DNA from: a virus
Length of the DNA: 24,356 bases
Direction: 5' to 3' (one strand)
Virus record (IMG/VR): IMGVR_UViG_3300042458_000227
Location: 1-24,356 of that record
A program made the position numbers and the translations under genes. A model generated the notes under the pieces. That model made no database searches. It was not told the DNA's origin and saw only the letters and a program-made list of their open reading frames with translations. Positions 1 through 22,846 of the stretch are shown here, in pieces; within the stretch, counting starts at the first letter, position 1; every line of letters starts with the position of its first letter.

Positions 1-3000
1 AAATATTCTGCACGAGCAATAGCACTACCACCAATAGGAAGATCAGTGACATTCTTATAGTCGGCAAGAACCTGCTCAGCCTTAGCAAGCCTCCAACGCA
101 TCTTAGGTGTAGTCGCACCCTGCCAAGCACCAAACTCCATACGTAGCGCAGAAGCAGTATCAAACTTTGATGATGCTTCAAGCAAAGTCTTTTCAACATT
201 ACGAATCTTTGCGGCAGTCTCATTATAACGTGCCTCAGTATAAGTAATAATGTCTGCCTTATCGTCAAGGAACTTAACTAACTCGTCATCAAAATTACTC
301 TTAATCTGATCAGCAAGACGTGTAGCGTACAAAATCTTTTGACCAATAGAATCCGTAGTGTCAGTACCCTTCCAAAAAATGTCAGTAAAATTCTCAATAG
401 CAGAGTTTAAGAAACCTATCTCTTTGCTAGTCAACTGAATCATCTCTTGCGTCTTGACAAGTTCCTTCAACCTCTCACCAGCAACGGTAACCAAACGTTC
501 ATTTGCGGGACGAAGAATTTTAATTTCGTCAAGTATGGTTTCCATCGCCTTAGTAGGAGTACTACCTGAAGCAAGCAACTCATCAAATCGTTTAACAGTA
601 TCAACTTGACCACCGACTATTTCGGAAAGTTTTTGCAAACGACCCTTAACAATTTTTTCTTGGAAAACACCACCAGTAAGATTCGCTTTAGCCTGCCAAA
701 CCTCAGGCCAAACTTCCTGACGTTTAACCAAAGCAGCGTTAGCCTGAATGCGCATCTTACTAATAGTTTCTAAAGCCTCATCAGTGTTAGACAACGAAAC
801 ATTGAAGCGTTCAATCTCAACAGTGGATTCAAGTTTGCGTGTCTTATCCAAGAACTTCTTATCTGAAGAAACATCCCAAATGTCATTTAACATTTTTTTG
901 CGTGCATTAATTCTACTTATATTAGTAACACGATTAAAATCGTTATTACCTTGTTTAGATAAAGAAACTAAACCTTCGGTGATGTCATCAAAAGAAGTTT
1001 CACCACTCTTAATAGCCTGCAACAAACCATGCATTTTCTGTAGGACAACTTCAGGAGCTGCCTGTTCTTGAGTGACAAACTTAAACTCCATAGCCTTACG
1101 ACGAGAAGCCAAAGCCTCTCCTTGTTGACGTAGTTTAAGGATTCTATTTCTAACCTCAGGCTTAATAGGCATATTGCGCCTCAAACCCTTTACTTCTTCA
1201 ATAGCACTTTCATAGTCAGCAACAAATTTCCTATTGTTAATAGCATCAAAAGTATCGCCTCGCATAGCACTACGTGCTGCTCTGTACTCAGCCTCGTACT
1301 TCTTAATCTGTCGCGGCAGACGTTCAAGAATTTCCATAGATTCAGCAGTGACAGAATCAGTAGGATCTAAACGAAGTAGTTCGTTATCAACATCAGCAAT
1401 CTCTTTATCCATAGCAATGCGTTGCGACTGCCTAGCAGACGCATACGCCTTAGGATCACCAATACTATATAAAGCCTCAAACTCGTTCTTGTTTAACGTA
1501 AAGATCTGACGTTTGCCATTCTCATAATAAACAATTTGTTGTTGGAACCCATCCTCAATAGCAACAAACGGCCTAGAAGTCTTTGTTGCAGCATCAGTGT
1601 TCTCACGATAAAACTTATTTATACCCAACTTCTGAGTATTCAAAGTAGTTTTTTCTTTCTGCAAGAAATCTATTTCACCAAGTTTCTGAGCACGCGGTTT
1701 AGTATTCTGCATGTCACGTGGTGACCAGCCCATATCAGAAACTTCTTTTCTTAAAGTTCCAACACGATCATCTATCTCAGCAATTCTGACATCAATATCT
1801 TTTTTAGCAGTAGAAATATAATCAGTAACATCATCAATCTGAATGTACTGACCATTCTGTTCAACATAAACTTTCTCACCCTTATTAACAGCCTGACGTG
1901 CACGAGCATTACCAGTCACAGGAATAGAGAAAGAAACATCGCCACTAACATCATAGTTAGCAAAAACACGCAACAAACTATCAAGTTGTTCACGTTCAAT
2001 AGCAGCAAAATATTCAGGAGAGTTCTGCAACTCTTCCAACTGACGATGAGCCTTACGAGCAGCAAGCAAAGCTTCCCTCTCAGGCAAGTCAACAGTCACC
2101 TTATCCAAACGACCCTTACCGACCAAACCTTCACGCTTGGCCAACAAAGCAGGTTCCGCAACGACAACTTCATCAAGTTTCTTTGAAGCACCTTCAACAG
2201 TACTGTTAATAACTTGGAACTTTCCTACGGCTTCCTCATACTGTCTAGCAAGCATATTCAAGATACCACCATACATTGAAGGCACATCTTGTCCTGGGCG
2301 TCGTCCGCCAATTACAATCTTGCTTACATCAACAAAAGGATCTTGAGCAACAGTTAGCCAAGTACGCGACTTGGATGACTGTTTGGCCGCGGTCGCAACA
2401 CGTTCCTGTGAAGCCTTCAACCACGTTAACATTTCACGAACAGAAGCATCTTCGGAAAGACGACCAGTCGTAATATTTGTTTTAGTTAACTCACGAATAG
2501 CAGAACCAATTTCTTGATACGAAGCAGTCTCATTGGTAGGATCAACATGCTTTGCATACCAATCACGCCAAACTTTAACAACAGAATCTTTCTGACGTTT
2601 CAAAGTAGCGTTATCAGGCAAAGCCGACAACTCAGCCTCAAGACTAGTGCGCTCTTCCGCTGTTATAGTTTTAGAACGCAACTTAGAATTAATAACACGC
2701 TTACGCTTAGGAATACCAGTGTTACCCTCTTCGGAACCAAGACGCAAAAACAATCGCTTCATATTACTAACATCTTCACGACCATTAACTTTGCTCAACA
2801 AAGTAACCCACTCAGCCATGTCGTCGCCAGTATTCGCAGAAAGAGCATTGTCAATCAAAGTATAAAGATCAGCAGGATCTCCACCCCAACCATCAGCCTG
2901 TGCAATCAAATCATTCAAGTTAATTTCTGCGCGACGATAGACAGCCGCTTCTGCTTGGATAACTTCACCATGTTCTTTGGCGACAATATTAACAATCTTG

Positions 3001-6000
3001 CGGTACATGTCTTGATCAGGAACAAGACCTTCTTTGAACATTAAGTCAGCGACACGTGAGAAACGTGTTTGAACTTCAGTAGTAAACCATGCTTCAAGAG
3101 TGGCGTTAGCCAATCTTGCACGCATCTCTTCCTGACCAACTCTGATAACTTTTTGTTTAGCGGCTTGTTGCGCTGTACGAACACCTTGACGTGTACCAGT
3201 ACCTGCACGAACATCAGCCTTCGCTCTAGCAACATTACTTCTACCACGTACACTGCGAGTAGAAGCATCCCAAGTAGTTTCATCGGCCATGCCCCCACCA
3301 GTGCCACCACGTTGAATACCATACTTGTCAAAAAGTTGAGTACGTAAAGATTCTATTTCACCACGCAAAGAATTATTTGGAAGTGCATCATCTCTAAAAG
3401 TTACTGCACGCGCGCGAGGTAAATTACCTCGTGGTGTAGACGCAGGAATAATTGCAGAAATACGATCACTAATATCTTTAGTAGCGTCATCAAGTTGCCT
3501 TGATGCAAGCGTCATGTTATCTAAAAGTAAACGATCAACTTCAGACCAATCAGACTCAGGAACATCTTTCAATTTCTTGCCTAGCACAGCAAGTTTTTCT
3601 TGAACAATATTTTGCACTGCACGCAAATCATTGTTCATAGAGACATAAGTTTTGGCATCAGCAGCACCAGTGAGCCACTTAACAATACGTTCATCAATCT
3701 TACGATTATTGATCATACGTGTAAGACCTGGCACAAGTTTATTCATACCAACTAAAGCAGTGACATTAGGAAGATCAATTAGGTCATCTGCGGTGACAAT
3801 ACGGCGAGGTGCACGAACGCCAGCGACACCACTTTCACCAGTAATATTTTCTGAAACCCATCTCTGCACATCGTCAATAGAAGCTTCACCACGATAGATG
3901 CGTCCACCATCAGTGTCACGCAACTTCAATGCGTTCATATAATCTTCCATGTTGATTGTTTTAATAACTTCATCCGTGTCAGTGACGCCAACACCCTTAA
4001 TGGGTGCAACAATCTGAAACTCGCGCGTCATTGTGTCAGTACGAATTTCATCAAGTCGGTTAGCAAAGTCATTGAAAGTAATGTTTGGTTTATCAAAATC
4101 AAAATACTTAAGCAACGAGTCATACTCGGGAGTATCTAAAAATTCTTTAAGAAGATCAGTACCATAAGTAGCATTAGGATCAGGTACACCATCTTTAAAC
4201 AAAGTATTCTTCAATTTGACAGCAGCAGCATATTCGTAAACGCTATCAACAACTTGGTTTTCAACTTTTGAATAGTTGTCATAAATTGTTTCCAAACGGA
4301 AACGACCAAACTTGTCTGTGTTAGATCTAGCTAACTTCATATAAAAGTTATCTACATCAGCGGCCTCAGCCAAAATGTCTTTAAGTTGATCAGCCAACCC
4401 AGCAGGCAAAGCAGTAGAACCATCATGCAAAGAAAGAATAGCCATAGCAGCAAGACGAGTTTCTTTAAGAGAAGCCTCGTCGCGCACACCACGATAAATT
4501 GCCTCGACAAGATTAGCGGAACCCATCATGTCAGCAACAGCAGTAGCAGAAATATCATCATCAGGGTTAGCCAACATCCACCAACGTTGATCAACAGCAC
4601 CTAAATTACTTACATCAACCTTAGACCACTCGCCACCAGCCTCAGCATAACGCTGAGCCAACAACGACTCTTTTGCAGGAGTCATCTTATTACGAGGGCC
4701 ACCAGTACTACCCCTCTGAACTTTTCCTTTAATTTCTTCCCACAACTTACCATTGACAGGAGTTGACTCAGTATCAACACCAAACACTCTCTGTCGTCGC
4801 CCACCCTGAACACGCGAATCACCAAACAAAGCCTTACGAACATTCTCAGAAAACTGTTTAGCGTTAGGAATATCCATACCATTAACAATGTCATCAAAAC
4901 GATTCTGAACAACATTGCCAAACTCTATTAAACGTCCCTCAATCTTTTGAAGTTGTTCCAACTCTTTGGCTGCTTCAGCCAAACGAGGACGAACAACACC
5001 ATCAATGTTCTCAAAAATCTCTGCCTGCTTCTGAGCCTCTTTAAGATCTTTAATAATACGACTGTACTGACCCTCAAGAGCATTCAACACTTCAGGACGA
5101 TCACCAAGAATACGACTCAACGTCTTATCATGCAAAGTCAACTCTTCAATAAGAGCACCCAAAGTTTGCTGTGTCTGGAAAACAGATTCACGTGCACCAT
5201 TAGTTCTAGTGAACAACTCGTCAAAAGAATCATTCAACTTACCCAAAGCCTTAGAAGCATTATTCATCGCCCCACGACGATCAGAAACAGCCTTCTTCAA
5301 ATTCTTAGTCGCACCATCAACAGCCTCATCGTTAATGAGTAGACGTTCCTCAAGGCGTTTAAAAACACCTTTCTCAGCAAGATATTTCTTACGAGCAATC
5401 TTACCCATCTGCGCAGAATACATATCAACATAACGATCCAACACAGTAGGCAAATCTGTTTCAAAGAAATCAAAATCAATTTTACCTTCACGACGAGCAA
5501 TCTTATTTAAACTAACAAGACCACCATCAATATCTTCTTGCTTTAAAATATAACCAAAGAAATCATCGCCAGCAACCATACGAGACTTGAACACACCCTC
5601 TTCTGTTAGAGGGTTATACAAAAGATTAGCCAACTTAACAGCAACAGGGTTCTCCGAGTTGGCCATAAAACGATACGCTTTTTCAGCAGGCAAGTGAGGG
5701 AAGTAATTAGTGATCCGACCAACAGGAGCATCAGGATCAACAGCCTTAGCAGCGACATCAATATTGTCATGCAACTGCTTTAAGAAACCAACAACAGGAA
5801 CAGCAAGACGCTCATCAGCAGTAGCAGTACCAGCCCTAACGGCCGCGTCAGAGTTATCCAACAAAGTATAAGCAGTACCACGAGCAGACTTAAGGTCTGC
5901 CTCGTTCACGGACCCCAACAACTGTCGTTGCAAAACTTGTGCAACACGTTTCTGAGCCGCTTGTTCCGCACGTTCAGTGTTACGTGAAACAACCATATGC

Positions 6001-6896
6001 AAATAATCTGCACCCTCATCAGCACCAGCAGTACCACGAGCCAAAGCCTTACGAGCCGCGTTCATGTCAGTAGAATCAAACAACTCAGAAGCACGTTTAA
6101 ACAAATGGTCACCTGACCAAGTTCTCATACCAACTATTCCACGTTCCAAACCTTCACCGACACGAGTAGTACCAGCAACACGGCGACCCATAAAATATAA
6201 GCCAGCACGATTGACGCCAGCCTTCGCAAGAAGGTCTGCGTCCTTGACAGCGACACGACCATAACGAGCAGCCCTAGTAACAATATCGTTAGGAGCACCA
6301 ATTTCTGCTAGACGACTAGCAAAAGCCAAACGTCCTTCTTTGCCGACAATAGAAACAGATTTAGCACCCTTGACAACAGCGCCAGCCTCATCAAGAAGTT
6401 TCATGCCACCCGAAATACGGCCAGCACCCAACGTCACATAAGTTAAAGGATCAAGAAGAATATCACCAGCAAAACCAAGAATACGGTTAGCCCAAGCACT
6501 ACCAGTAGCATCACCAATAACTTTACCAAAACCAAAACTAGGATCAGCGACCTGCTTAGTAAAATCATTCCACGAAGCAACAGTATTAGGATCACTATCT
6601 AAAGCATCTTTCAATTCCATTACTGTAGATGTGACAGCACGCCCAGGCAACGAAATAATTTCGCCTGCCTTTGAAACAACCTTGCCCACAGGTGACTCTA
6701 AAATGTCTGTAATAAGACCTTTCCAACCACCAACATCAGGAACAGTGTTAGCCCCGCCCATAGCGGTGTAATCCCTATTAAGCGTACTATTCATCGTCTG
6801 CTGTTTCAGAACACTTTGCAGTGTCTGAACAGAGGACGATTTGGCCTGTTGTTGGGCAGCGCGAGCGAGATCTAAACGAGGATTATAAACAGCCAT
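1..6896 (-). CDS. giant virion/ejection-type protein, C-terminus outside window
   Basis: A single minus-strand frame runs from ATG at 6894-6896 (MAVYNPRLDLARAAQQQ) to the left edge without a stop, giving 2298 complete codons plus two bases. The protein is therefore larger than this. I recognise no enzymatic motif. An early hydrophobic stretch (GDILLDPLTYVTLGAG) and an NYFPHLP motif (residues 397-403) resemble, from memory, large phage virion proteins. Long charged heptad-like helical segments are visible around residues 505-650 and 1700-1940, and the whole chain reads as mostly alpha-helical. It is the last gene seen in the leftward structural run, after three smaller Gln/Ala-rich or helical proteins. 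T7-like phages place internal core proteins gp14, gp15 and gp16 there. Inference: a DNA-ejection or capsid-core protein about twice the length of T7 gp16 or more. The start has no clear Shine-Dalgarno and lies 8 bases after the previous stop. Alternative: a polyvalent protein with an enzymatic domain beyond the window. The frame is certain; the role is moderately supported. Confidence 0.85.
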   Translation of the reverse strand, partial: MAVYNPRLDLARAAQQQAKSSSVQTLQSVLKQQTMNSTLNRDYTAMGGANTVPDVGGWKGLITDILESPVGKVVSKAGEIISLPGRAVTSTVMELKDALDSDPNTVASWNDFTKQVADPSFGFGKVIGDATGSAWANRILGFAGDILLDPLTYVTLGAGRISGGMKLLDEAGAVVKGAKSVSIVGKEGRLAFASRLAEIGAPNDIVTRAARYGRVAVKDADLLAKAGVNRAGLYFMGRRVAGTTRVGEGLERGIVGMRTWSGDHLFKRASELFDSTDMNAARKALARGTAGADEGADYLHMVVSRNTERAEQAAQKRVAQVLQRQLLGSVNEADLKSARGTAYTLLDNSDAAVRAGTATADERLAVPVVGFLKQLHDNIDVAAKAVDPDAPVGRITNYFPHLPAEKAYRFMANSENPVAVKLANLLYNPLTEEGVFKSRMVAGDDFFGYILKQEDIDGGLVSLNKIARREGKIDFDFFETDLPTVLDRYVDMYSAQMGKIARKKYLAEKGVFKRLEERLLINDEAVDGATKNLKKAVSDRRGAMNNASKALGKLNDSFDELFTRTNGARESVFQTQQTLGALIEELTLHDKTLSRILGDRPEVLNALEGQYSRIIKDLKEAQKQAEIFENIDGVVRPRLAEAAKELEQLQKIEGRLIEFGNVVQNRFDDIVNGMDIPNAKQFSENVRKALFGDSRVQGGRRQRVFGVDTESTPVNGKLWEEIKGKVQRGSTGGPRNKMTPAKESLLAQRYAEAGGEWSKVDVSNLGAVDQRWWMLANPDDDISATAVADMMGSANLVEAIYRGVRDEASLKETRLAAMAILSLHDGSTALPAGLADQLKDILAEAADVDNFYMKLARSNTDKFGRFRLETIYDNYSKVENQVVDSVYEYAAAVKLKNTLFKDGVPDPNATYGTDLLKEFLDTPEYDSLLKYFDFDKPNITFNDFANRLDEIRTDTMTREFQIVAPIKGVGVTDTDEVIKTINMEDYMNALKLRDTDGGRIYRGEASIDDVQRWVSENITGESGVAGVRAPRRIVTADDLIDLPNVTALVGMNKLVPGLTRMINNRKIDERIVKWLTGAADAKTYVSMNNDLRAVQNIVQEKLAVLGKKLKDVPESDWSEVDRLLLDNMTLASRQLDDATKDISDRISAIIPASTPRGNLPRARAVTFRDDALPNNSLRGEIESLRTQLFDKYGIQRGGTGGGMADETTWDASTRSVRGRSNVARAKADVRAGTGTRQGVRTAQQAAKQKVIRVGQEEMRARLANATLEAWFTTEVQTRFSRVADLMFKEGLVPDQDMYRKIVNIVAKEHGEVIQAEAAVYRRAEINLNDLIAQADGWGGDPADLYTLIDNALSANTGDDMAEWVTLLSKVNGREDVSNMKRLFLRLGSEEGNTGIPKRKRVINSKLRSKTITAEERTSLEAELSALPDNATLKRQKDSVVKVWRDWYAKHVDPTNETASYQEIGSAIRELTKTNITTGRLSEDASVREMLTWLKASQERVATAAKQSSKSRTWLTVAQDPFVDVSKIVIGGRRPGQDVPSMYGGILNMLARQYEEAVGKFQVINSTVEGASKKLDEVVVAEPALLAKREGLVGKGRLDKVTVDLPEREALLAARKAHRQLEELQNSPEYFAAIEREQLDSLLRVFANYDVSGDVSFSIPVTGNARARQAVNKGEKVYVEQNGQYIQIDDVTDYISTAKKDIDVRIAEIDDRVGTLRKEVSDMGWSPRDMQNTKPRAQKLGEIDFLQKEKTTLNTQKLGINKFYRENTDAATKTSRPFVAIEDGFQQQIVYYENGKRQIFTLNKNEFEALYSIGDPKAYASARQSQRIAMDKEIADVDNELLRLDPTDSVTAESMEILERLPRQIKKYEAEYRAARSAMRGDTFDAINNRKFVADYESAIEEVKGLRRNMPIKPEVRNRILKLRQQGEALASRRKAMEFKFVTQEQAAPEVVLQKMHGLLQAIKSGETSFDDITEGLVSLSKQGNNDFNRVTNISRINARKKMLNDIWDVSSDKKFLDKTRKLESTVEIERFNVSLSNTDEALETISKMRIQANAALVKRQEVWPEVWQAKANLTGGVFQEKIVKGRLQKLSEIVGGQVDTVKRFDELLASGSTPTKAMETILDEIKILRPANERLVTVAGERLKELVKTQEMIQLTSKEIGFLNSAIENFTDIFWKGTDTTDSIGQKILYATRLADQIKSNFDDELVKFLDDKADIITYTEARYNETAAKIRNVEKTLLEASSKFDTASALRMEFGAWQGATTPKMRWRLAKAEQVLADYKNVTDLPIGGSAIARAEY

Positions 6897-6904: not shown

Positions 6905-8164
6905 CTACTGGCTGTTACCTAAACCAAAAAGAGCCAAACGCTGATTAATCTGATCCCCAGTAGGCGTTCTACCAGCATCAATAAGGTTCTGCAACTCAGC
7001 CAATTTCTCAACATCAATCTCTCTACTCTTCGCTTCAACCTTAAAACGATCCGCAGAAAGATATTGATCCTTATTTTTATCCTTAGCTTTCTTCTCCGCT
7101 TCCCTGGACATAGCCATACCACGAAATTCAGCCATCAAATTGTTATCTTTACGTTTGCCACTAATAAGAGGTTTGCCAGCAGCAATATAGTCAGAAACCT
7201 TTACAGCACGTTCGTCGTCGTTACCCGAAAACCAGTCGTCTATTGCAGAGCCAGTACCCGAAGTACCCTTATTGACCTCATTGAGAATAAAGTTTTTGAA
7301 TGCTTCTTCTTTTTCAGCAGGAGTAAAAGTTTTGTCAACATACTTCTGTTTTTCCTGATCATAAACTTTGACAGTACCAAGACCAAAACTTTTATTATAA
7401 ATATCTATCATCCATGCTTCTTCAATACCAAGAATCTTAGCCAATTCCTTAGCATCTTGTTTACTCTGAGGCAACAACCTAGCAGGAATAGCATCCTGAG
7501 CAGCCTTATCTTGCTCCATCATCTTCGTATAAATAGCCTGAGTATCAACACCAGTCTGCTGTCGTTGCTTATCAGTACGCAAAGACAAACTCTGAATCAT
7601 ATTTTGCAACTCAGATTGCTGATCATAAATATCCTGGCTAAAAGGAGCATCATTAACAGAATACTGCTCGTAAGGTTGGCGCAACCCAGCCTTACCATAA
7701 ACATTATCCTGCTCAGCCTCACGCATATCCTTCTCATACGTAATAGCAGCATTCTGTTTGTCACGAACCTCATTAAACATATTGTTAATAATATCTTCAA
7801 TAGTTTTAAGATTAAGACCAGCACCAGTTGAATACTCGTCAACACCCAAAGTCTCAGCAACAACACTAATAGCGTTTTGACGATCAATAGTTCCATCAGA
7901 AATCTGTTGAGCAACCTGATTCCAAATAGGAGTAGAACTATTCAACGCGCCAGTTAACTCAGGAGTAGCGAACTCAAAAGGAGCAGGAACTAAACCAACA
8001 GGATCAAACATTCCATAAGCCGCAGAAAACTGCGGATTAAAAACAGACGACATAATATCCTGCGTATAATTCAACTGCGACGAAGATGAAGGTGGATTAT
8101 CACCCGAACTATCCTGCAAATATTGAATCAAAGCCAAAGGATCATTAATTTTAGGTTGTACCAT
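6905..8164 (-). CDS. internal virion (ejection)-type protein, unknown family
   Basis: A protein of 419 aa from ATG at 8162-8164. A GTG one codon upstream (8167) is also open. GGAGG at 8171-8175 sits 6 nt from the ATG but only 3 nt from the GTG, and the ATG gives an ATGA overlap with the upstream stop, so the ATG is preferred. No known enzymatic motif is visible. The chain is polar, rich in Gln, Asp and Lys, and largely helical in appearance, with a charged C-terminal half (EAEKKAKDKNKDQ; DVEKLAELQNLIDAGRTP). The middle has a compact Lys/Glu-rich stretch (KELAKILGIEEAWMIDIY). It lies between a Gln/Ala-rich protein and the giant protein, the slot of T7 gp15-like internal core proteins. The role is inferred from position; sequence alone does not identify it. 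Confidence 0.8.
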   Translation of the reverse strand: MVQPKINDPLALIQYLQDSSGDNPPSSSSQLNYTQDIMSSVFNPQFSAAYGMFDPVGLVPAPFEFATPELTGALNSSTPIWNQVAQQISDGTIDRQNAISVVAETLGVDEYSTGAGLNLKTIEDIINNMFNEVRDKQNAAITYEKDMREAEQDNVYGKAGLRQPYEQYSVNDAPFSQDIYDQQSELQNMIQSLSLRTDKQRQQTGVDTQAIYTKMMEQDKAAQDAIPARLLPQSKQDAKELAKILGIEEAWMIDIYNKSFGLGTVKVYDQEKQKYVDKTFTPAEKEEAFKNFILNEVNKGTSGTGSAIDDWFSGNDDERAVKVSDYIAAGKPLISGKRKDNNLMAEFRGMAMSREAEKKAKDKNKDQYLSADRFKVEAKSREIDVEKLAELQNLIDAGRTPTGDQINQRLALFGLGNSQ

Positions 8165-9372
8165 CACTGACCTCCAAGAAGAGCCATAATCTTAGATATA
8201 TCAACACCCTGGCCAGCAAGACCCAACAACTGTTGCATCAAAATATCCTGACGATTCTGAGTATTAGAAGTCTGAGTCAAATTACCTTGCAACTGACCAA
8301 GACCAAGTTGATTCAAAAAATCACCTAAACTATTTTGATTCAAAATACCTGACTGCAACTTGGACTGACCCAACTGTTGCATAGCCTGAGCAAACTGAGC
8401 CTGCTGAGCCTGCTGAGCCAACTGAGACTGCTGTAAAGCCTGCAAACCAGCCGCACGCTGATTAGCAGACAAATCCTGCTGAGCACCAGCACGAGCCACA
8501 CTCACATCACCAATACGAGACTGCTGAGCCGCCTGATTTGAAGCACCTAACAACTGAGCAAGATTACTGAATCCCCCACCTGTCGTCGCATTCTGAGACT
8601 GCAACATCTGCTGCAAAGCATCAATACCACCCTGAGGAGCACCAACAGCCTGACTATAACCAGCCATAGGATCAGACACAGCACCAATATTAGCCATCTG
8701 CAAACCAGCATAAGGATTACTTTGACCACCAAGCGCCGCTAAAGCGCGCTGGGTGCTCTCATCAATAGTTGCACGACCAGCATCAGATTGCGTAGTGATT
8801 TCGCCAGCAGTTTGGTTATACATGTTTTGCAACATTGCTAACGCATCTGCGTTTAAACCACCGAGTTGTGTTTCAACACCACCATAAAACAAATCAATAG
8901 CATCTTGCTGTGCTTTAGAACGAGCCTGCGCATCAGTAGACAACTGCCCATATCCTGCATTAATAGCAGGGTTAACAGCAGAGTTATTTAAATTTGTTGC
9001 ATACTGCGTAAGCGCCGACATGAGAGGAGCGTTTTGTGTAGTCATAGTTCCACCGCCACGTGAACTAGTTTTAGTAGGAGGATCAACTTTGTCTACATCA
9101 GGAAAAGCACGCTTCCTAACCCAATTCGCTAAATCATTACCAGCAAGAGGGCGCCCATCAACTATAATCTTTTTGCCTTCTTCAACAAAAGAAGCAAAAG
9201 CAGGATTTTTCATCCACGACAAATCATGAGCGGCACGCTGTGGAGTCGCAATGTTTTGAACATCAGCACTAAAATCAGGGTACACACTACCACCACTTGG
9301 ACCATCATATTTAGAAACAGTCGCTGGTTTACCAACAGTTCTTTTACGTTCCATTGCATTAGCATTAGGCAT
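8164..9372 (-). CDS. Gln/Ala-rich internal virion-type protein
   Basis: A 402-aa protein starting MPNANAMERKRTVGK. Residues 1 to about 110 are a mixed polar region containing a short folded-looking stretch (SWMKNPAFASFVEEGKKII). The rest is very rich in Gln, Ala, Asn and Leu, with runs such as QLAQQAQQAQFAQAMQQLGQ, typical of long helices that pack in a core or lie along membranes. The DNA under this run is a degenerate CTGAGC/CTGCTG repeat (about 8391-8430). There is no transmembrane segment and no catalytic motif. It begins 4 nt after the preceding stop, with AGGAG about 9 nt upstream, and ends in an ATGA overlap with the next gene. By position and composition it resembles the small and middle internal core proteins of podoviruses; this is inference. 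Confidence 0.82.
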   Translation of the reverse strand: MPNANAMERKRTVGKPATVSKYDGPSGGSVYPDFSADVQNIATPQRAAHDLSWMKNPAFASFVEEGKKIIVDGRPLAGNDLANWVRKRAFPDVDKVDPPTKTSSRGGGTMTTQNAPLMSALTQYATNLNNSAVNPAINAGYGQLSTDAQARSKAQQDAIDLFYGGVETQLGGLNADALAMLQNMYNQTAGEITTQSDAGRATIDESTQRALAALGGQSNPYAGLQMANIGAVSDPMAGYSQAVGAPQGGIDALQQMLQSQNATTGGGFSNLAQLLGASNQAAQQSRIGDVSVARAGAQQDLSANQRAAGLQALQQSQLAQQAQQAQFAQAMQQLGQSKLQSGILNQNSLGDFLNQLGLGQLQGNLTQTSNTQNRQDILMQQLLGLAGQGVDISKIMALLGGQ

Positions 9373-9375
9373 AAC

Positions 9376-9807
9376 TCACGCTCCTAAAAATGGGCGCAAG
9401 CCCTGTAAAGAAGCAGCAGTGTCAAGAATGTCACGCTGCTTCGCCAACTCTATATCACCCAAAGTACTCTCATACCCAGCCTGAGACTGAGCATCCTGCA
9501 AATCATACTCAGCCAACTGCTGACGCAAAGCGTCCAACTGATCATTACGCTGATTCATCCAATTCTGCGAATAGTCAGAAGCAGCACCTTTAAAAATACC
9601 GCTATTACGTAAACCACGCTTAGCATACCCAGCACCAAAACCCTCAAGCCCTTTAGCCGCAGTCTTGTCAGTAGTCATAAGATCACGAGAACCACGTTGC
9701 TGCGACAAAAGACGACTGAACGCATTCATCGCCAAAGAAGCGTCACGCTGTTTAGTCGCGCCACGCTTTTGAGGTTCGTAATTTAAACCTATATCAGTGT
9801 AAGCCAT
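9376..9807 (-). CDS. small internal virion-type protein
   Basis: A 143-aa protein, MAYTDIGLNYEPQKRGATK, with a basic N-terminal third, a Gly/Ala-rich middle (GLEGFGAGYAKRGLRNSG) and a C-terminal amphipathic helix rich in Gln, Asp and Leu (about residues 90-135: NDQLDALRQQLAEYDLQDAQ). The start lies 2 nt after the stop of the 45-aa gene, with an AAGGG run about 10 nt upstream as ribosome-binding site. It is the first of four consecutive genes with helical, Gln/Ala-rich products that lead into the giant protein. That order matches T7 gp14-gp15-gp16. No family was recognised from sequence; the ejection role is positional inference. Confidence 0.8.
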   Translation of the reverse strand: MAYTDIGLNYEPQKRGATKQRDASLAMNAFSRLLSQQRGSRDLMTTDKTAAKGLEGFGAGYAKRGLRNSGIFKGAASDYSQNWMNQRNDQLDALRQQLAEYDLQDAQSQAGYESTLGDIELAKQRDILDTAASLQGLRPFLGA

Positions 9808-9809: not shown

Positions 9810-9947
9810 CTAATCACCCTTTTCGTTACCCTCACCCTTATCCACAGAAGCAATAAAAGCCTCTAGCAAGGCAACCTTCTGAGCATAATCTGCCACTTGT
9901 CGTAGCAAAGACTCGATAACTTTATTTGCATCTACCTGCTCGTTCAT
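9810..9947 (-). CDS. 45-aa hypothetical protein after the tail fibre
   Basis: A short frame, MNEQVDANKVIESLLRQVAD and onward, 45 aa, ending GNEKGD. It starts at ATG 9945-9947 in an ATGA overlap with the tail-fibre stop and ends 2 nt before the next start, so it fills an otherwise empty slot exactly. Residues 6-35 form one amphipathic helix (IESLLRQVADYAQKVALLEAFI). A GGTAACG motif lies inside its last codons, 16 nt before the next gene; here it also encodes Gly-Asn. Translational coupling is likely. Function unknown; it could be a small fibre-associated or chaperone-like helical protein. Confidence 0.65.
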   Translation of the reverse strand: MNEQVDANKVIESLLRQVADYAQKVALLEAFIASVDKGEGNEKGD

Positions 9948-11638: not shown

Positions 11639-12645
11639 AGTTTAATAATGTAGTTCACCACAATATAAGGAGCAAGATTACTAAACGCAGTACCGCTACC
11701 TTCAAGGGCAGTAGAACCACTCATCGTGTGCGTGTGTCCACCACCAGCAGTAATTGAACCAGTAAATGAGTGTACCATCGCAGCAAAACCTGATTCACTA
11801 CCTGATGTAAATGAAGCAATATCTACCGTACCACTTGCCGTGTGAGTATGTTCGTTTTCAAACGAAACAGCCATACCTTCGTTAGTATTTGAATATCCCA
11901 ATCCTGCTGTTCCTGCCAAAAGACCATTCATAGTGGTGGGTTGAACACCAGTAGCATAACCACCTGATACTTGTGCAGTAAGTCTAGTAACACGATCAAC
12001 AGTGTTGTTATCTACAGTTACTGAAACTGCCGTACTTGGCGGGTCAACCGTATGAGTGTGACTAGAACTATGGTTTGCAATAGCAAGAGTATGAGTATGA
12101 ACATGGTCAGCAATAGTGTTAGGCAAAATAGTTCCAACACCGTGTTGATGAGAAGGCAAGTTAGCCGTAATTAACGTACTTGTCTTAGAACCACCAGTCT
12201 CAGCCAACGCATCAAACTCAGTCTGAGTAGAATCCTTACCAACAGGAATACGACCCTGTAAGTTAGGAACATTATAAGTAGTTGTACCATCACCAGTACC
12301 GTACGTAATGCCAATGGTAGAAAACAAACGACTATACAAAGGATTAGTGCGACTAACAGCCTGACCCTGACACAACAACCAACCTGTCGGCGCAGAAGAA
12401 CCACCATACTGAGTGATCACACCAGCAGGCAAAAAGTTATCAACATACGCTTTACGTACAGCCTGATTATCGGTCGTAGGATCAGTAGCGGGCAAACTAG
12501 GAATAGCCGTGAACGCAATACTTGCGTCACGCTGAACAACCTCAGTGTTTACAAAGTTAACAACACTAGTAAAGTTAGAGTTAACCTGAGTACCATCAGC
12601 ATTAGTACCATTAGCGAACGTATAAGTAACAGCAGCAGTAGCCAT
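11635..12645 (-). CDS. tail adhesin with phage collar domain and His-rich tip
   Basis: A 336-aa protein. Residues about 72-140 match the phage tail collar domain: GVITQYGGSSAPTGWLLCQG, then YGTGDGTTTYNVPNLQGRIPVG. After it come repeated HxH motifs (HQH 166-168, HVHTH 181-185, HTH near 197, and further EHTHT and GHTHT). In T4 gp37-like needle tips such motifs coordinate metal along a trimer axis. The C-terminus NLAPYIVVNYIIKL is the usual end of collar-domain fibres. The N-terminus (TFANGTNADGTQVNSNF) is a typical fibre attachment start. It begins in a 1-nt overlap (TGATG) with the upstream tail gene and ends ATGA into the S74 fibre. The phage thus encodes two adjacent adhesins. Role confident; receptor unknown. 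Confidence 0.88.
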   Translation of the reverse strand: MATAAVTYTFANGTNADGTQVNSNFTSVVNFVNTEVVQRDASIAFTAIPSLPATDPTTDNQAVRKAYVDNFLPAGVITQYGGSSAPTGWLLCQGQAVSRTNPLYSRLFSTIGITYGTGDGTTTYNVPNLQGRIPVGKDSTQTEFDALAETGGSKTSTLITANLPSHQHGVGTILPNTIADHVHTHTLAIANHSSSHTHTVDPPSTAVSVTVDNNTVDRVTRLTAQVSGGYATGVQPTTMNGLLAGTAGLGYSNTNEGMAVSFENEHTHTASGTVDIASFTSGSESGFAAMVHSFTGSITAGGGHTHTMSGSTALEGSGTAFSNLAPYIVVNYIIKL

Positions 12646-14258
12646 CAGGCACGCACCTTCCTTGGATTATATTTGTAGGTAATCGAGTTAACACCCCAAG
12701 GTTTCCCACCCTCACCTTGAATTCTTAATTGCACACTACGAGCAAGTCCTAAAGACTTGCCGACAGTAAAGACAGCACCAGTAGCACTAGAACCCCAGTT
12801 GGCTTCATTCCAACCATCAATGTCGTCATCCTCAGTACCAAGAGGATTCCAAATAAGAGAAGTACCCGAAGCATCCAACGACACAACATACGTCTTAGCC
12901 ACAATAGACTCTTCCCAATCATGATAAACACTCAAAGTCAAATCAGTAGCAACACTCGTCTGCTTCACAACAAAATCAGGACGTCTCCACATTTTACGAT
13001 TAGAAACATTATTAGCATCCTGCCACCCAGTCGTATAATACGAACTAAAATTAGTAGTACCTGTACCAACATCGTCCTGGTACACACTCAACTGATCAAC
13101 TTTCAACACATAAGCGTTAGAAGGATGACAAACCAAATTGTAAGTCGTGCCAGTTGACGTAACAAAATTGCAGCCACTACCAACACCTTTTAAATCAGAA
13201 GTCTGATATTTAGTCCAAGCACCATTCTGCTTCAACGTAGGATCATAAACATATGAAGCAGTAGCTTTAGTATCAGAACCCAAAGGCAACGAAAGCCAAA
13301 TCTTTTGATTCACACTAGAAACACGAATCTCATCCTGAGCAATATTATTAACCCCACCCGACTGCACCAAAGGACGAATATTCGCAAACAAATCCATAAA
13401 TTGCTGACCATCAAACTTGAACAGTCCATCAGGCCAAGAGAAAAAATATACTGCAGTTTCAGTAGCAACAACACTCAAAGGATTAACAGCACCAACTTCA
13501 CCAGTCAAATTAACAACCTGGAACGTGTCAGTTGAATAACCCATAATACTGAACACGGCACGCTTCTTAAAAACAAGAAGGTTGCCGTTAAAAGGAATGA
13601 TCGCAGTAATACCCGAACCACCCTCAACAATATCAATGTAATCATTAGTAGCCCAAGACTCACGATTAATAGGATGAGAAAACCGAACACGGTTAGGGTA
13701 ATCAGTAGAACCCTCAGTCACATGCGCACACCACAAACGATCAACATGCGACGTAATATAACGACACTTGGGAGCAAAACCAGTAACAGGAGCAGAATAA
13801 TCATCCGCATAAGCAGTGCTAGCATCAGTCAACGCAGTAGCAGTAGTACCATCCCATTTATAACTAGCACCACCAGTACCAATATAAACAAAACTTTGAT
13901 CACTGGCAGACCAAGCAGTAAACGACGCACCAAAAGGTGCAGTCGTAGTAATACCAGCAATGGCAGTAAACGCTGTTGTCGTAGCATCATAAACAGCACT
14001 ATTAGCAGACAACAATAAACGTGGCGTAGTGTTATCCCAAGCGTACAACGCTTTGGGAGTAAACGAACCATTCGAGATAGACCCAATAGCAGACGTATTC
14101 AACTTCGTCATACCACCACGCATAGTCAAACCACCACGTGGATCAATATCCACGTTAAGTAGATCGGGTGATTCAGTACGACCTAACTGGAAAGGATCAG
14201 CGCGAAGGTTAAGACCACCAGTAAAATCGTCTGTACGAAGCAACGACAAACGGCTCAT
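12645..14258 (-). CDS. tail nozzle/hub-like beta-rich tail protein (T7 gp12-type position)
   Basis: A 537-aa protein, MSRLSLLRTDDFTGGLNLRA at its start. The opening DFTGGLNLRADPFQL, followed by SPDLLNVDIDPRGGLTMRGG, is the common start of podovirus tail tubular/stabilisation proteins. The rest is beta-rich with propeller-like elements (LYAWDNTTPRLLLSANSAVY, QSFVYIGTGGASYKWDG, GNLLVFKKRAVFSIMG, AVYFFSWPDGLFKFDG). In T7 the equivalent gp12 forms the nozzle below the adaptor ring. It overlaps the adaptor gene by ATGA upstream and the collar adhesin by 1 nt downstream, as expected for stoichiometric tail parts. The fold and role are inferred from these motifs and the order adaptor, nozzle, fibre. 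Confidence 0.82.
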   Translation of the reverse strand: MSRLSLLRTDDFTGGLNLRADPFQLGRTESPDLLNVDIDPRGGLTMRGGMTKLNTSAIGSISNGSFTPKALYAWDNTTPRLLLSANSAVYDATTTAFTAIAGITTTAPFGASFTAWSASDQSFVYIGTGGASYKWDGTTATALTDASTAYADDYSAPVTGFAPKCRYITSHVDRLWCAHVTEGSTDYPNRVRFSHPINRESWATNDYIDIVEGGSGITAIIPFNGNLLVFKKRAVFSIMGYSTDTFQVVNLTGEVGAVNPLSVVATETAVYFFSWPDGLFKFDGQQFMDLFANIRPLVQSGGVNNIAQDEIRVSSVNQKIWLSLPLGSDTKATASYVYDPTLKQNGAWTKYQTSDLKGVGSGCNFVTSTGTTYNLVCHPSNAYVLKVDQLSVYQDDVGTGTTNFSSYYTTGWQDANNVSNRKMWRRPDFVVKQTSVATDLTLSVYHDWEESIVAKTYVVSLDASGTSLIWNPLGTEDDDIDGWNEANWGSSATGAVFTVGKSLGLARSVQLRIQGEGGKPWGVNSITYKYNPRKVRA

Positions 14259-14947
14259 TGACCAAGAGTCCTACCAAGTGATTGTAGCCACCAGCGACGA
14301 GAGTTATGTGGAGCACCATCAGAAACAGCAAGAGGTCGTTGCGACGAAGGACGCATAAGATCTTGTGCTGTTAATCGTACCGCTTCGTCAAATGATTTAC
14401 GATAGAAGGAGGCGAGTTCAATGTCCTCTTGCAACTGGTACACTTGCGCCACCCCATAGTACACAAGACACTGATGTAAGCGTTCGTCTGCGTCAACTTC
14501 CGTGGAATCTGAAGCAGACCAATCGTCAGGCTTACGATATCCACGAATAGTAAGCGGATACGTTGTATCAGGCTTGGGCCACAAATGCACTTGGTCTTGC
14601 CACAACGTAAAATACAATGGCCGTTGAACTTGGTCATAAGATCCGACCCAAACCGCTTCAGCATCATCATAACTAATATACTCCAAACGATTACCAACAG
14701 TAGAGGTATCAACAATAGAAGTGATCTCACGCAAGTTGCCATCACCAATAGCGTTAATAGCGTACGAACGTTGACCAGGGATAGTGGTCATGGTGAACGT
14801 TTTTTGATAGAACGGCCAACGCCGTTCCAAAGCAATAATACGATCAAAACCATCTTTAATATACATTGTTAAAAGAGTGTCAGAAACATCCTGTTGATCA
14901 AGATCAACTATCTCACGAATCTTAGAACGGATCTCAGCTAGGTTCAT
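14255..14947 (-). CDS. head-to-tail adaptor (T7 gp11 / tail tubular protein A-like)
   Basis: A 230-aa protein starting MNLAEIRSKIREIVDLDQQD. The pattern of an N-terminal helical pair, FDRIIALERRWPFYQKTFTM with a beta segment ending in GQRSYAI, a middle DQVHLWPKPDTTYPLTIRGY and a C-terminal helix rich in Glu/Arg is typical of podovirus head-tail adaptors. These form a 12-fold ring under the portal. The start is supported by AAGGAG 8 nt upstream; the coding region overlaps the preceding Cys/His gene by 14 nt and the following tail gene by ATGA. Family assignment rests on this pattern plus position; no other candidate adaptor exists in the block. Confidence 0.83.
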   Translation of the reverse strand: MNLAEIRSKIREIVDLDQQDVSDTLLTMYIKDGFDRIIALERRWPFYQKTFTMTTIPGQRSYAINAIGDGNLREITSIVDTSTVGNRLEYISYDDAEAVWVGSYDQVQRPLYFTLWQDQVHLWPKPDTTYPLTIRGYRKPDDWSASDSTEVDADERLHQCLVYYGVAQVYQLQEDIELASFYRKSFDEAVRLTAQDLMRPSSQRPLAVSDGAPHNSRRWWLQSLGRTLGQ

Positions 14948-16119: not shown

Positions 16120-17085
16120 TCAAGCAGTCTTAGCCGTAAGCTTACCCTGCTTTTCGCGGTTACGAATCGTAAGGTTACCGTAGCACAAGATGAGCGCATA
16201 GCGAGCATCCATGTTCTCAGGACGAAGGAATTCGGTATTAGCGAACCACTTGTCTGAGTGACCTACAAGGCTGATGTACTTGCTGTTCAGGAAGTACATA
16301 ACACCCGAAGTGCAATGAACGTCATAAGCAACAGGAGCAGCCTTGAACAACAAGTTTTGGAAGCCTGCATCAGCAGTCTTAGTGTCGGTGTAGCGAAGTT
16401 GCGGTTGAAGCAACGACTCATACTTTTCAAACAATGTCTGAGTGGTAAGAACCATGTCAGGATGATCGTTACCAACACTAACAGTGTTATAGGCAGTCGT
16501 CATCTGAGCAAGTGTCAAAGCACCAGCAGTGTTTTCTTCGTATGAACGCCACCAGTCATTACCCTGACCTGAAGCCGAGTTAATGCCACCAACAGTGTTG
16601 CCTGATTCAACCAAGTTACCAAGGCCGTTCCAAGACTTACCGCTGTCAGCGCCAGCAGCACCAAGAGTGTCAGTTCCGTTACCGAAGAACATGCGGTTGA
16701 AGCCTTCCTTCATTGATTCTTCAGCCTGCATAATCTTGGCTTCAAGAAGGTTAAGGATAGCCTGCTCACCATTGTTCTTGGCTTCTTCAATACCGCTGAT
16801 AGCGATAGAAACAGCGTACTGCTTCCAATCGTATTCAGCAGCCGACATTCCTTCTTGAGGAGTCAAAGCCAATGTGTCGTAGCCACTGTAAGGTGCAACA
16901 GTAGATGATTCACCATAAATCAATGGTTCAACAATCTTAGTTCCACCATTCAACATGCGGATACGGCCTTTGTCCATCAAATGATAGGTCAAAGGACGTG
17001 CAGTGAACACGTTGTCAGTGAGGGTCTTGCGATAGTTCGCAATCGTTGTGGATAGAAGTGCGTCAAAGTTAGCGTTACCAGCCAT
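16120..17085 (-). CDS. major capsid protein (HK97-like fold expected)
   Basis: A 321-aa protein that forms the procapsid and capsid shell. Its sequence pattern fits phage major capsid proteins: an N-terminal helix (FDALLSTTIANYRKTLTDNV), a spine-helix region with Gln/Glu/Lys (EAKNNGEQAILNLLEAKIMQ), a Gly/Ser/Asn-rich loop segment and a C-terminal domain ending GHSDKWFANTEFLRPENMDA. Length fits T7-like capsids. AAAGGA lies 7 nt upstream of the ATG. It follows the scaffold by 18 nt and is closed by a strong terminator 24 nt later, so it is the last gene of the head unit, as needed for high expression. No frameshift product is evident. Family assignment is from pattern and position. Confidence 0.92.
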   Translation of the reverse strand: MAGNANFDALLSTTIANYRKTLTDNVFTARPLTYHLMDKGRIRMLNGGTKIVEPLIYGESSTVAPYSGYDTLALTPQEGMSAAEYDWKQYAVSIAISGIEEAKNNGEQAILNLLEAKIMQAEESMKEGFNRMFFGNGTDTLGAAGADSGKSWNGLGNLVESGNTVGGINSASGQGNDWWRSYEENTAGALTLAQMTTAYNTVSVGNDHPDMVLTTQTLFEKYESLLQPQLRYTDTKTADAGFQNLLFKAAPVAYDVHCTSGVMYFLNSKYISLVGHSDKWFANTEFLRPENMDARYALILCYGNLTIRNREKQGKLTAKTA

Positions 17086-17934: not shown

Positions 17935-19788
17935 TTAAGTATTAGGTAATTGCATACCCAAACGCTGCGACAAAGCCGCGAGCACCGCAGGATCAACACC
18001 TGACAACGCCTCAGGACCTTGAGGCATCGGCCCCATAGCACCAAGATTAGTAGGAGGCATACCCATTCCTTCAGGAGGCATAGGTGCGCCACCAGGAGGC
18101 AACATACCCATTTCTTCGGGAGGCATAGGAGCACCCTCAGGTGGCATACCACTTTCTTCGGGTGGAGGACCCATAGGTAATGGTGCTTCTTGAATAAACT
18201 GATCAGGGTTCTTGATACCAAAACCAAACTGCAGAACATGTCCAGCCAACGCTGGCATGTTCACAATACCCATACCAGCAAACGGGGCCATAGCATCCAC
18301 AAGTTGCAAAGCCATCTGTCGTCGGAACGACTCATTGCTAGGTGCAGTAGAGCCTGCCTCAACTTCAAAGTCAAACTCGCCAGCAATATAGTCGGAATCA
18401 AAAGTAACCCACAAAGGCTCACCATCTTTACCAACAATACGAGCAACCTGCTCACCAGTCATAAACTGTTGAGCCAAACCAACAAGACGCAAAGCAACTT
18501 CAGCAATAGCACCTTCAATGGTAGCTAACTTGTCAGCAGCACGAGCGTTAGCCGCGTCCTGCACAATAGCCGCTTCTGTTGCTGTACGACGAATCTCAGG
18601 AACACCACCACGCTGATACTCGGATACACCCGAAACAGTCTGAATGTCACCTTCAATAATGTCTGACTGACGATAAAACTCGGGAGGAGTCATAACAGCA
18701 GGAAAAGGAGCAACAACGTTAGCGAGGTTTTCGTCACCCGAAACTGGAACCATTACGTTGTCGTAATCTGATTCCAAAGCGTCACGACCATCAGCATCAA
18801 ATGCTGATTCCTTGTATAGATATTTACGTGAGTACCGTTTACGGTGATTCATCATCTGAGTACGAGTCGCGTTCAACTCACGTTGAAGCGGCTCAATAGC
18901 CTCAAGATCACCCATAGGATAGAAGTAGTCGGGAATATCGTAGTTGCGGATCATTACAAAAGGATGACCAAAAGTATAGGGCATATCCATAGGCTTAACC
19001 AAATACTGGTCACCACCATCACAGAATACACACATAGTCTTTTTAACTATGTCGTAGTATTCCCAAACTTCAACATATCCTTCTTCGGTATCTTGAATTT
19101 TACGCTTGCCTGGATCTTCGTTGTAACGACCCCACGAAGTAGCATTGATGCTCTCGCGCGCGGCGCGTGAGTATCGCTTATCTGACTTAACTTCAGTCAA
19201 TGTACGACGAATACGTTGAGCGATCCAACGAGCGTCCTGCATAGAAGTAGCATCAGGATCAACAAACACATCAAATGGTGACACACGCTCAACAAAAGGA
19301 CGATCTTCCGTAACAATAATAGTAGGCGTAATTTCGTTGCCTTCTACTTGCGAATCAGAATTATCTCCTTCTTCAGAAATCTGATCTTCTTCCACATAAC
19401 GATAACCACACTTAAGCCAGCCATGACCAACAATAAGAAAATCTTTTACAGCCCTACGGAACTCAGGACGAATCTTATAGTGCTTCCACCAGTAGTTAAT
19501 GACAGCCTCAGTAATAATAGCCTTAGGCGAGTCCTCGGGACGACGAGCATTAACAGCAATCTTAGGATAGTTAACAGCAACGCTAGGAGCAATAACGTTT
19601 ACAGTAGAAAACGAAATATTGACAAGCAAACGATCCTCAGGAGAAATGTCCTCATACTGCTTGCCTCGATACAAGTCAATTAGGCGACGCCAAAGATCAT
19701 CATAATCTTCCTCACGACGCCACCGTTTTGTCGTAGCGATCTTTTGCTTATATTTGCTAAGAGTTTCTGAATGCGTTTGACGCGCCAT
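17935..19788 (-). CDS. portal protein
   Basis: A 617-aa portal that forms the dodecameric DNA entry pore at one capsid vertex and binds the terminase and the adaptor ring. Matching features: the N-terminal helices and WRRLIDLYRGKQYEDISPED segment, FSTVNVIAPSVAVNYPKIAV, the beta-rich clip/wing region (PFVERVSPFDVFVDPDATSM), a long stem-helix region (EPLQRELNATRTQMMNHRKR) and the crown helices with many Ala/Arg. The extra C-terminal ~90 residues are Pro/Met/Gly-rich with PPEG and PMPPEE repeats, not part of the core fold. Starts 2 nt after the preceding stop; no strong Shine-Dalgarno. Confidence 0.93.
   Translation of the reverse strand: MARQTHSETLSKYKQKIATTKRWRREEDYDDLWRRLIDLYRGKQYEDISPEDRLLVNISFSTVNVIAPSVAVNYPKIAVNARRPEDSPKAIITEAVINYWWKHYKIRPEFRRAVKDFLIVGHGWLKCGYRYVEEDQISEEGDNSDSQVEGNEITPTIIVTEDRPFVERVSPFDVFVDPDATSMQDARWIAQRIRRTLTEVKSDKRYSRAARESINATSWGRYNEDPGKRKIQDTEEGYVEVWEYYDIVKKTMCVFCDGGDQYLVKPMDMPYTFGHPFVMIRNYDIPDYFYPMGDLEAIEPLQRELNATRTQMMNHRKRYSRKYLYKESAFDADGRDALESDYDNVMVPVSGDENLANVVAPFPAVMTPPEFYRQSDIIEGDIQTVSGVSEYQRGGVPEIRRTATEAAIVQDAANARAADKLATIEGAIAEVALRLVGLAQQFMTGEQVARIVGKDGEPLWVTFDSDYIAGEFDFEVEAGSTAPSNESFRRQMALQLVDAMAPFAGMGIVNMPALAGHVLQFGFGIKNPDQFIQEAPLPMGPPPEESGMPPEGAPMPPEEMGMLPPGGAPMPPEGMGMPPTNLGAMGPMPQGPEALSGVDPAVLAALSQRLGMQLPNT
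18061..18135 (-). repeat. Pro/Met/Gly repeat in the portal C-terminus
   Basis: Two 30-bp copies (18061-18090 and 18106-18135, period 45 bp) match at 26 of 30 positions. They encode GAPMPPE(G/E)MGM-type units in the disordered-looking tail of the portal. Divergence is mostly silent. Confidence 0.7.
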
Positions 19789-20415: not shown

Positions 20416-20421
20416 CGTTAC
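20416..20421 (-). promoter_or_regulatory. GTAACG junction motif after TerL
   Basis: The TAA stop of the large terminase is part of GTAACG (GGTAACG). Sequence further downstream (ATTC, then GGGATCTATT) resembles the two 33-bp elements but overlaps the start of the next gene, so the similarity may be chance. Confidence 0.4.
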
Positions 20422-22010
20422 CTGTTGTTTCTAGTGTTATATGCGCCGATAGGTATCGTTCCTGTACCATGATCTTCACTCATAACAAATCGTTCAAACC
20501 AATGCAAACTATATTTAGGTATAGGGGCTTCGGCGCGATATTCGGGCAACCACACATATTTCAACATTTGATATGTGATAGCCAAGGACATTACACGGTC
20601 GTCATGGGGTGAACCATGCATTTTACCATTGGGGTCACGGACGAATGTTCTTAATTCTGCAATAGTGCGGCTATCAAACAAACCAAGCTCAGAGTCACGG
20701 ATAGAAGCAGAAAGTTCGTCAATAGCCAAAGGTTTTGTGGCTGTCGTAGTACGCCAACCCAACTGTTCAGTCGCCTCAGGGCGACGTTGCTGTAATCTGC
20801 GAGTGCGGTAAATATTTTTGTAACCATATCGTTGTAAAGCTTTCAGAGTAGTTAGACCGTGGTTGTTATTTTCTACACCCACAAGAGCGCCGTTATACCA
20901 CCAGCCTATTTCGGCAAGTAGATCACCAAAAAGGTCAGGTTCAATATGGCCATGCCAGTGTCCTACAACTTCTAACGATCTAGCCTCAATAATATGTGCG
21001 GTAGAATAGTCGCCGTGAACAAGACCTTCGGCAACGTCAGCACCGACAACATACACACCTTCAGGTTTGGGGTATTCCCAAATAGCGAACTCTCCTTCAG
21101 GAACTATTCTGAAGTCACAGTTCTTTTTAGAAATAGTATGCAAATATCCGCGGGCAGGTTCAATAGTTTCTAATGAATCCAGTAAATCAATATCAAAGAC
21201 AGGGTTACCTGACTTAATGAACGCTTCTTCGGGTGTGCGAGGGTATTCCTGGTGCAATTGCCAACCAGGCATAGTTCTACATTTAGATTCATACCATTCT
21301 TCGTCACGGTCGCCAGCAGACCAAGGCCAAAAGATGCCTTTGAAAAGGTTTGCTCCCGTCTGTGAGCCAGTCCAAAGATGATGAAAGAAGTTACCTGACC
21401 CGTTAGCCGTACTCAAACAAATAACACGACCACCAACGTCAGCAATCGGCTCAATAGAAGCCCACGCTTCTTCCGAGTTAGGTAAGAACGCCATCTCGTC
21501 AACAATAACAAGATACACAGATTCACCACGAGCAGGATCATTACCCGATGGTAATGATTCAATCGCAGACTCATTAGAAAAAGTCATCTTTAACTGGTTA
21601 TCAGATGTGATCTGAGGACCACGTTCTTTCATCCACTGAGGGACAAACTTAAAGCCATACTTAGACTTCTGTAGCAACTTGGCGGCTTCTCGTTCAGTAC
21701 GAGACAACATGACCACAAAACGGTCCTGCCAAAAGAATGTCAACCAAAACGCGTAAGCAGCACCAAGAGTAGAAAACCCGATCTGACGTGCTTTTAAAAC
21801 CACACTGTAACGGTTAGACAACCATGCTCGGATAGTTTCAATCTGGGCTTCACGCATTTCAAAAGGGATACGTCCTCGCTCAGGATGTTTGATATACCAA
21901 TAGTTGGTACAGAAGTGCTCAAATGCGTCCACGAGGTCGTCAATACTGGCGTCCTGAGGTCCTTTACATTTACGCCACTCACGTTCGTTGAGTAGTTCAT
22001 TCAGATCCAT
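20418..22010 (-). CDS. terL: terminase large subunit
   Basis: A 530-aa packaging ATPase-nuclease that moves genomic DNA into the procapsid and cuts it. ATPase: Walker A-like KARQIGFST (residues 73-81), Walker B YLVIVDE (166-172) and coupling motif STANG (200-204). Nuclease (RNase H-like): D325 in GADVAEG, E380 in VGVENNN and D470/D471 in HDDRVMS are the likely metal ligands. Length is normal for the family. The start has GAGGA about 5 nt upstream. It is preceded by a 42-aa Cys-rich gene overlapping by 14 nt and by the small subunit. No headful or cohesive-end mechanism can be told from sequence alone. Confidence 0.96.
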   Translation of the reverse strand: MDLNELLNEREWRKCKGPQDASIDDLVDAFEHFCTNYWYIKHPERGRIPFEMREAQIETIRAWLSNRYSVVLKARQIGFSTLGAAYAFWLTFFWQDRFVVMLSRTEREAAKLLQKSKYGFKFVPQWMKERGPQITSDNQLKMTFSNESAIESLPSGNDPARGESVYLVIVDEMAFLPNSEEAWASIEPIADVGGRVICLSTANGSGNFFHHLWTGSQTGANLFKGIFWPWSAGDRDEEWYESKCRTMPGWQLHQEYPRTPEEAFIKSGNPVFDIDLLDSLETIEPARGYLHTISKKNCDFRIVPEGEFAIWEYPKPEGVYVVGADVAEGLVHGDYSTAHIIEARSLEVVGHWHGHIEPDLFGDLLAEIGWWYNGALVGVENNNHGLTTLKALQRYGYKNIYRTRRLQQRRPEATEQLGWRTTTATKPLAIDELSASIRDSELGLFDSRTIAELRTFVRDPNGKMHGSPHDDRVMSLAITYQMLKYVWLPEYRAEAPIPKYSLHWFERFVMSEDHGTGTIPIGAYNTRNNR

Positions 22011-22550: not shown

Positions 22551-22567
22551 CAAAATACAGGCAACTT

Positions 22568-22573: not shown

Positions 22574-22585
22574 CTGTTTAGGGAT

Positions 22586-22598: not shown

Positions 22599-22621
22599 CT
22601 TAGGTTAGGGGCCATCAAGTA

Positions 22622-22843: not shown

Positions 22844-22846
22844 GTC

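What the first reader, a model, noticed from the sequence alone, without database searches (positions are those of the whole stretch)
1..6896. Giant open frame of at least 2298 codons in a compact podovirus
One uninterrupted minus-strand frame covers the left 28 percent of the window and still has no stop. It follows three Gln/Ala-rich or helical genes, in the slot of T7 internal core proteins. I find no transglycosylase or protease signature in it. A chain this long in a short-tailed phage is unusual and may be an ejection tube or core protein, or a polyvalent protein with an enzymatic part further on.
Basis: partly seen in the sequence, partly recalled or inferred. Interest (0 to 1): 0.68.

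Follow-up and report, generated by a model that had tools for sequence, protein, structure and literature searches.

The report
Giant phage protein, probably injected
The huge gene is real and belongs to a widespread, unnamed family of very long proteins (about 960 to more than 3,700 amino acids) in short-tailed phages; their shared rear part is distantly related to a known 'polyvalent protein' domain, so this one is most likely packed in the virus head and pushed into the bacterium with the DNA.

Summary
One minus-strand frame runs from 6896 off the left end (at least 2298 codons), under purifying selection (dN 0.11, dS 0.64 against an 82%-identical relative). The record is a fragment; the closest full-length relatives are 3116-3173 aa, so about 530 residues are probably missing.

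Profile searches recovered about 80 relatives, mostly on phage contigs up to 46 kb, plus Arthrobacter phage Jasmine gp29 (a podovirus by electron microscopy), Microbacterium phage Shocker gp37 and a Cellulosimicrobium phage DS1 protein. Nearly all full-length members combine an undescribed N-terminal module, a middle of about 120 to 2280 residues, and a C-terminal module of about 416 residues. By profile-profile comparison the C module is a divergent LPD38 plus the block before it (HHalign probability 96.9; controls 5.1 or less). LPD38 is reported only from phage-type polyvalent proteins; the giant LPD38 protein of podovirus JC1 is in the virion by mass spectrometry.

Gene order resembles the N4 ejection set. 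Best reading: a virion-packaged, ejected giant protein. No enzyme was found in the window's copy; one relative carries a GNAT domain. New variant of a known kind. The window's own C-terminus and its virion location were not observed.

The parts
3..6896 (-). Giant gene, at least 2298 codons, 3' end beyond the record; expected total about 2830 aa from alignment with L023
5217..6896 (-). N-terminal module (residues 1-560), conserved in the family; contains the G-x-x-GD-x-x-LDPLTY motif
   Evidence: PHROG 36598 (the Jasmine gp29 family) matches residues 91-172 with E 5.4e-5
2307..3329 (-). Middle segment (about residues 1190-1530) shared with 31 of 82 relatives; function unknown
6905..8167 (-). 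420-aa gene directly upstream of the giant, third of a conserved trio
8164..9372 (-). 402-aa Gln/Ala-rich gene, second of the trio
9376..9807 (-). 143-aa gene, first of the trio; 27-87% identical counterparts in the same place in relatives
12645..14258 (-). 537-aa short-tail structural gene (PHROG 21185 tail protein, PHROG 511 internal virion protein)
14255..14947 (-). 230-aa structural gene (PHROG 399)
16120..17085 (-). Major head protein (PHROG 9953, E 2.5e-72)
17935..19788 (-). Portal protein, SU10/P22 type
20418..22010 (-). Terminase large subunit

Best explanation
The giant frame encodes a virion-packaged protein that is ejected into the host with the DNA at the start of infection. It is the last member of an ejection set (143 aa, 402 aa, 420 aa, giant). 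Proposed working: the conserved C-terminal module (divergent LPD38) helps load the protein into the head or engage the tail channel; the long helical middle passes the narrow channel as loosely linked pieces; the conserved N-terminal module works at the host membrane or with the smaller partners; the middle is a length-variable spacer that sometimes carries an effector domain. Shown here: the frame, the N and C modules of the family, the gene order, and homology of the family's C module to LPD38. Inferred: presence of the C module in this phage, packaging, ejection, and the role of each module.
For: N and C modules in nearly all full-length relatives with a middle of 124-2283 residues, also in three cultured actinophages. 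HHalign of the C module with genuine LPD38 proteins: probability 96.9, E 1.6e-10, 384 colinear columns, against at most 5.1 in controls. Viral structure matches to polyvalent and LPD38 proteins. LPD38 is reported only from phage-type polyvalent proteins, proposed to be injected (PMC5512222); the JC1 4515-aa LPD38 protein is in purified virions (PMC9144972). Conserved gene trio upstream, arranged like N4 gp52-gp51-gp50 (PMC12633501). Jasmine's virion genes are placed at 11-29, the giant being gene 29.
Against: No mass spectrometry or structure for any member of this family. The window's own C-terminus is not in the record. The Pfam LPD38 model itself does not match family members. The trio has no detectable homology to solved ejection proteins. 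No strongly hydrophobic segment was found in the window's part, so membrane contact is unsupported by simple hydropathy.
Confidence: 0.7

Rival explanations
1. It is an internal core or tail-lumen structural protein that stays in the particle and organises DNA packing or release, without entering the cell.
For: Gene position among virion genes, helical make-up and absence of an enzyme.
Against: Its C module is related to one of proteins proposed to be injected, and podovirus proteins in this slot are typically ejected.
Confidence: 0.15
2. It is a polyvalent effector protein whose main role is an enzyme or anti-host domain hidden in the divergent middle or in the missing end.
For: A GNAT domain lies inside the 2160-aa giant of L099. 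The middle of the L036 giant resembles phage proteins of which two are annotated ADP-ribosyltransferase. Polyvalent proteins usually carry enzymes.
Against: Pfam finds no enzyme in the window's part or in nearly all relatives; ART-PolyVal was not met in 38 records; the closest complete relatives end in the C module, not in an enzyme.
Confidence: 0.1
3. It is a virion RNA polymerase of the N4 kind.
For: Same size class and a similar gene set of small, middle and giant proteins.
Against: No RNA polymerase model in Pfam scans of the middles; only a sub-threshold hit to the vRNAP plug insertion inside one C module (E 0.067). The shortest members leave only about 120-380 residues between the modules.
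Confidence: 0.03

Closest known systems
LPD38-bearing giant polyvalent proteins of podoviruses (JC1 gp69; Pfam PF18857)
   Same: Giant chain in a short-tailed phage, encoded in the virion module, C-terminal module homologous to LPD38
   Different: No methylase-helicase, transglycosylase or LPD3 domain found; different N module; C module too divergent for the Pfam model
N4 gp50 virion RNA polymerase and its partners gp51 and gp52
   Same: Giant protein preceded by small (about 145 aa) and middle-size partners in one operon; likely ejected through a short tail
   Different: No RNA polymerase domain recognised; no sequence match
T7 gp14-gp15-gp16 internal core proteins
   Same: Position late in the virion operon and proposed working
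   Different: No transglycosylase domain in the giant; no sequence match in the profile libraries; well over a thousand residues in most members
Arthrobacter phage Jasmine gp29 (PHROG 36598)
   Same: Both modules, same neighbouring genes, same place before a lytic enzyme; a true relative
   Different: 1803 aa instead of an expected 2830; itself of unknown function

Membership tests
Pfam LPD38 (PF18857) | Match to the Pfam model over its curated cut-off | tested here: not met
   No match in 54 C modules, 17 records or four whole proteins
Pfam LPD38 (PF18857) | Homology of the C-terminal region at profile-profile level (family, not the window's own missing end) | tested here: met
   HHalign probability 96.9, E 1.6e-10, 384 columns; controls at most 5.1
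Phage-type polyvalent protein (Iyer et al. 2017) | Several domains of disparate biochemical activity in one chain | tested here: not met
   No enzymatic domain recognised in the window's part; one relative has GNAT
Phage-type polyvalent protein (Iyer et al. 2017) | Encoded with virion genes, packaged and injected | tested here: inconclusive
   Encoded among virion genes; packaging and injection not testable with these tools
N4-like virion RNA polymerase | Single-subunit RNA polymerase domain | tested here: not met
   No such Pfam match in the window's part or in the relatives scanned
T7 gp16-like internal virion protein | Lytic transglycosylase (SLT) domain in the protein | tested here: not met
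   SLT found only in separate frames of 112-184 aa in 7 of 49 records; none in the window's part
DarB-like methylase-helicase antirestriction protein | Adenine methylase plus SF2 helicase domains | tested here: not met
   No such Pfam match in the window's part or in the relatives scanned
Jasmine gp29 family (PHROG 36598) | Match to the family profile and the same gene neighbourhood | tested here: met
   Window residues 91-172, E 5.4e-5, and 28 of 41 relatives; neighbourhood

The most novel reading that the evidence does not exclude
The C module marks one very large superfamily of ejected giant phage proteins of which Pfam LPD38 is only a part. It would be a common loading or ejection element for chains of 1000-4000 residues, while the N module is a separate host-membrane or partner-binding device of this podovirus lineage, several members of which infect actinobacteria.
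Probability: 0.35. Interest if true: 0.72.

Novelty: new variant of a known kind. Interest (0 to 1): 0.52.

Why it matters
In these phages roughly a tenth to a quarter of the genome goes into one gene that databases call hypothetical. Recognising two conserved modules, and linking one of them to polyvalent proteins, ties many unannotated giants to one testable idea: very long proteins threaded through a short tail into the host. Jasmine and Shocker grow on laboratory actinobacteria, gram-positive hosts in which podovirus ejection machinery is little studied, so the idea can be tested directly.

Tried and rejected
Pfam, PHROG and PDB sequence searches with the window's part found nothing firm. 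The PDB coiled-coil matches at the end of the N module and the four-helix-bundle matches reflect generic helices and were not used. The PDB second look with the C-module model gave nothing above Z 3.2. The N-module model is of modest confidence (pLDDT 71, pTM 0.52) and its fold was not interpreted. A direct search of annotated phages missed with the window's protein but worked with a full-length relative. A genome scan with the C-module alignment found no relatives and a motif scan found seven MAG contigs, so no host was assigned to the window. Bcep22 and Ralstonia phage records were not found under the accessions tried, so LPD38 sequences were taken from genomes. The last viral scan for a contig continuing past the window's left end found none. 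The vRNAP, methylase-helicase and transglycosylase readings failed. A tail tape measure was set aside because the portal and tail genes are of short-tailed type.

Full report
WHAT WAS CHECKED. The minus-strand frame 3..6896 is open over 2298 codons, begins with ATG and runs off the left end. The window is the entire virus record, so nothing to its left is held. The frame is a real gene: the chance of such a run at this base composition is about 10^-65, and against L002 (82% identical) dN is 0.113 and dS 0.639. The other genes on the strand include a terminase pair, a P22/SU10-type portal, a scaffold, a major head protein, two short-tail structural genes and a tail fibre gene, consistent with a podovirus.

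RELATIVES. A first scan gave six relatives, four of them with the complete gene (2496, 2496, 2632 and 3288 aa). A full-length relative then found Arthrobacter phage Jasmine gp29 and its kin and two Podoviridae genomes from Manatee Spring, and Jasmine led to Microbacterium phage Shocker gp37 and a Cellulosimicrobium phage DS1 protein. Jasmine is a podovirus with a tail of about 10 nm (PMC5513430). Scans with alignments of the two conserved ends gave 19 and 73 loci. Seventy-five complete frames (some from identical contigs) run from 961 to 3416 aa, median 2569; one frame open at its 5' end reaches 3782.

ARCHITECTURE. Profiles of the N end (about 560 residues) and the C end (about 416 residues) match nearly all full-length members, more weakly at the N end in the shortest ones. 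The three cultured actinophage proteins match both profiles (E 2e-12 to 1e-7 for N, 3e-21 to 2e-8 for C, each in a small search). The stretch between the modules ranges from 124 to 2283 residues and is poorly conserved. The closest complete relatives, L023 and L024, align with the window up to residue 2278 (L023 residue 2633), and L023's C module begins at 2755. The window therefore stops just before the C module, and about 530 residues are probably missing.

THE C MODULE. Its core resembles FDY...PFW.W.SRN. A scan for the variant PFYTWTRKN gave 86 frames from viral and genome contigs; in 84 of them the motif lies 128-311 residues from the end of the frame. All 86 match the C-module profile at E 1e-3 or better and 26 also match the N profile. 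The AlphaFold model (pLDDT 86.5) matches, in the viral structure library, proteins named for large polyvalent protein associated domains, LPD38 among them. The Pfam LPD38 model itself does not match. Genuine LPD38 proteins were therefore collected from genomes and aligned with 330 upstream residues. HHalign gives probability 96.9 and E 1.6e-10 over 384 colinear columns, and an independently gathered alignment gives the same. Reversed profiles, 20 block shuffles and three other alignments gave at most 5.1. The C module is thus a divergent LPD38 together with the conserved block before it.

SETTING. The 143-, 402- and 420-aa genes before the giant have counterparts at the same places in relatives. 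The gene after the giant, tested in nine relatives, is a VanY-type peptidase or an amidase over the Pfam cut-off in three and a sub-threshold M15 peptidase in one; five are unrecognised. In L037 and L038 the set is 137-141 aa, one gene of 654-952 aa, and the giant, closely like N4 gp52 (150 aa), gp51 (644 aa) and gp50 (about 3500 aa), all ejected (PMC12633501). None of the upstream genes matches a solved structure, so the likeness is one of arrangement, not shown homology.

MECHANISM. LPD38 is reported only from phage-type polyvalent proteins, proposed to be injected with the DNA (PMC5512222). In podovirus JC1 the 4515-aa LPD38 protein is in purified virions, with 51 unique peptides (PMC9144972). 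The best reading is therefore a packaged and ejected giant; packaging, ejection and the role of each module are inferred. An enzymatic function is not required: Pfam found none in the window's part, one GNAT domain in L099, and in L036 a stretch resembling phage proteins of which two are annotated ADP-ribosyltransferase, while the ART-PolyVal model was not met. Transglycosylase occurs only in separate small genes.

VERDICT. The kind is known; the family, its N module, its spread and the LPD38 link of its C module were not described in the papers found here, a search limited to one open-access library.

Noticed in passing
L099 4898-11380, about residues 1086-1149 of the 2160-aa frame: A GNAT acetyltransferase domain sits inside the middle of this giant protein, over the Pfam cut-off.
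   Followed up: partly
L036 9758-17623, residues 1221-1499: The middle of this giant resembles Gordonia phage Forza gp78 (next to the portal gene) and phage proteins of which two are annotated ADP-ribosyltransferase; ART-PolyVal was not met.
   Followed up: partly
L191 11739-12806 (minus strand): The only motif-bearing frame in which the C-module core lies far (1452 residues) from the end of the frame, so the module may be internal there.
   Followed up: no
Seven relatives, e.g. L266-L269: A small separate frame (112-184 aa) with an SLT transglycosylase match occurs in the same phage genomes.
   Followed up: no
window 9944-11638 (minus strand): A 564-aa gene with a sub-threshold phage cement-protein match (residues 90-160) and a sub-threshold Peptidase_S74 match near its end.
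   Followed up: no
window 22554-24356: The right end beyond the small terminase gene holds only short frames; no gene was identified there.
   Followed up: no
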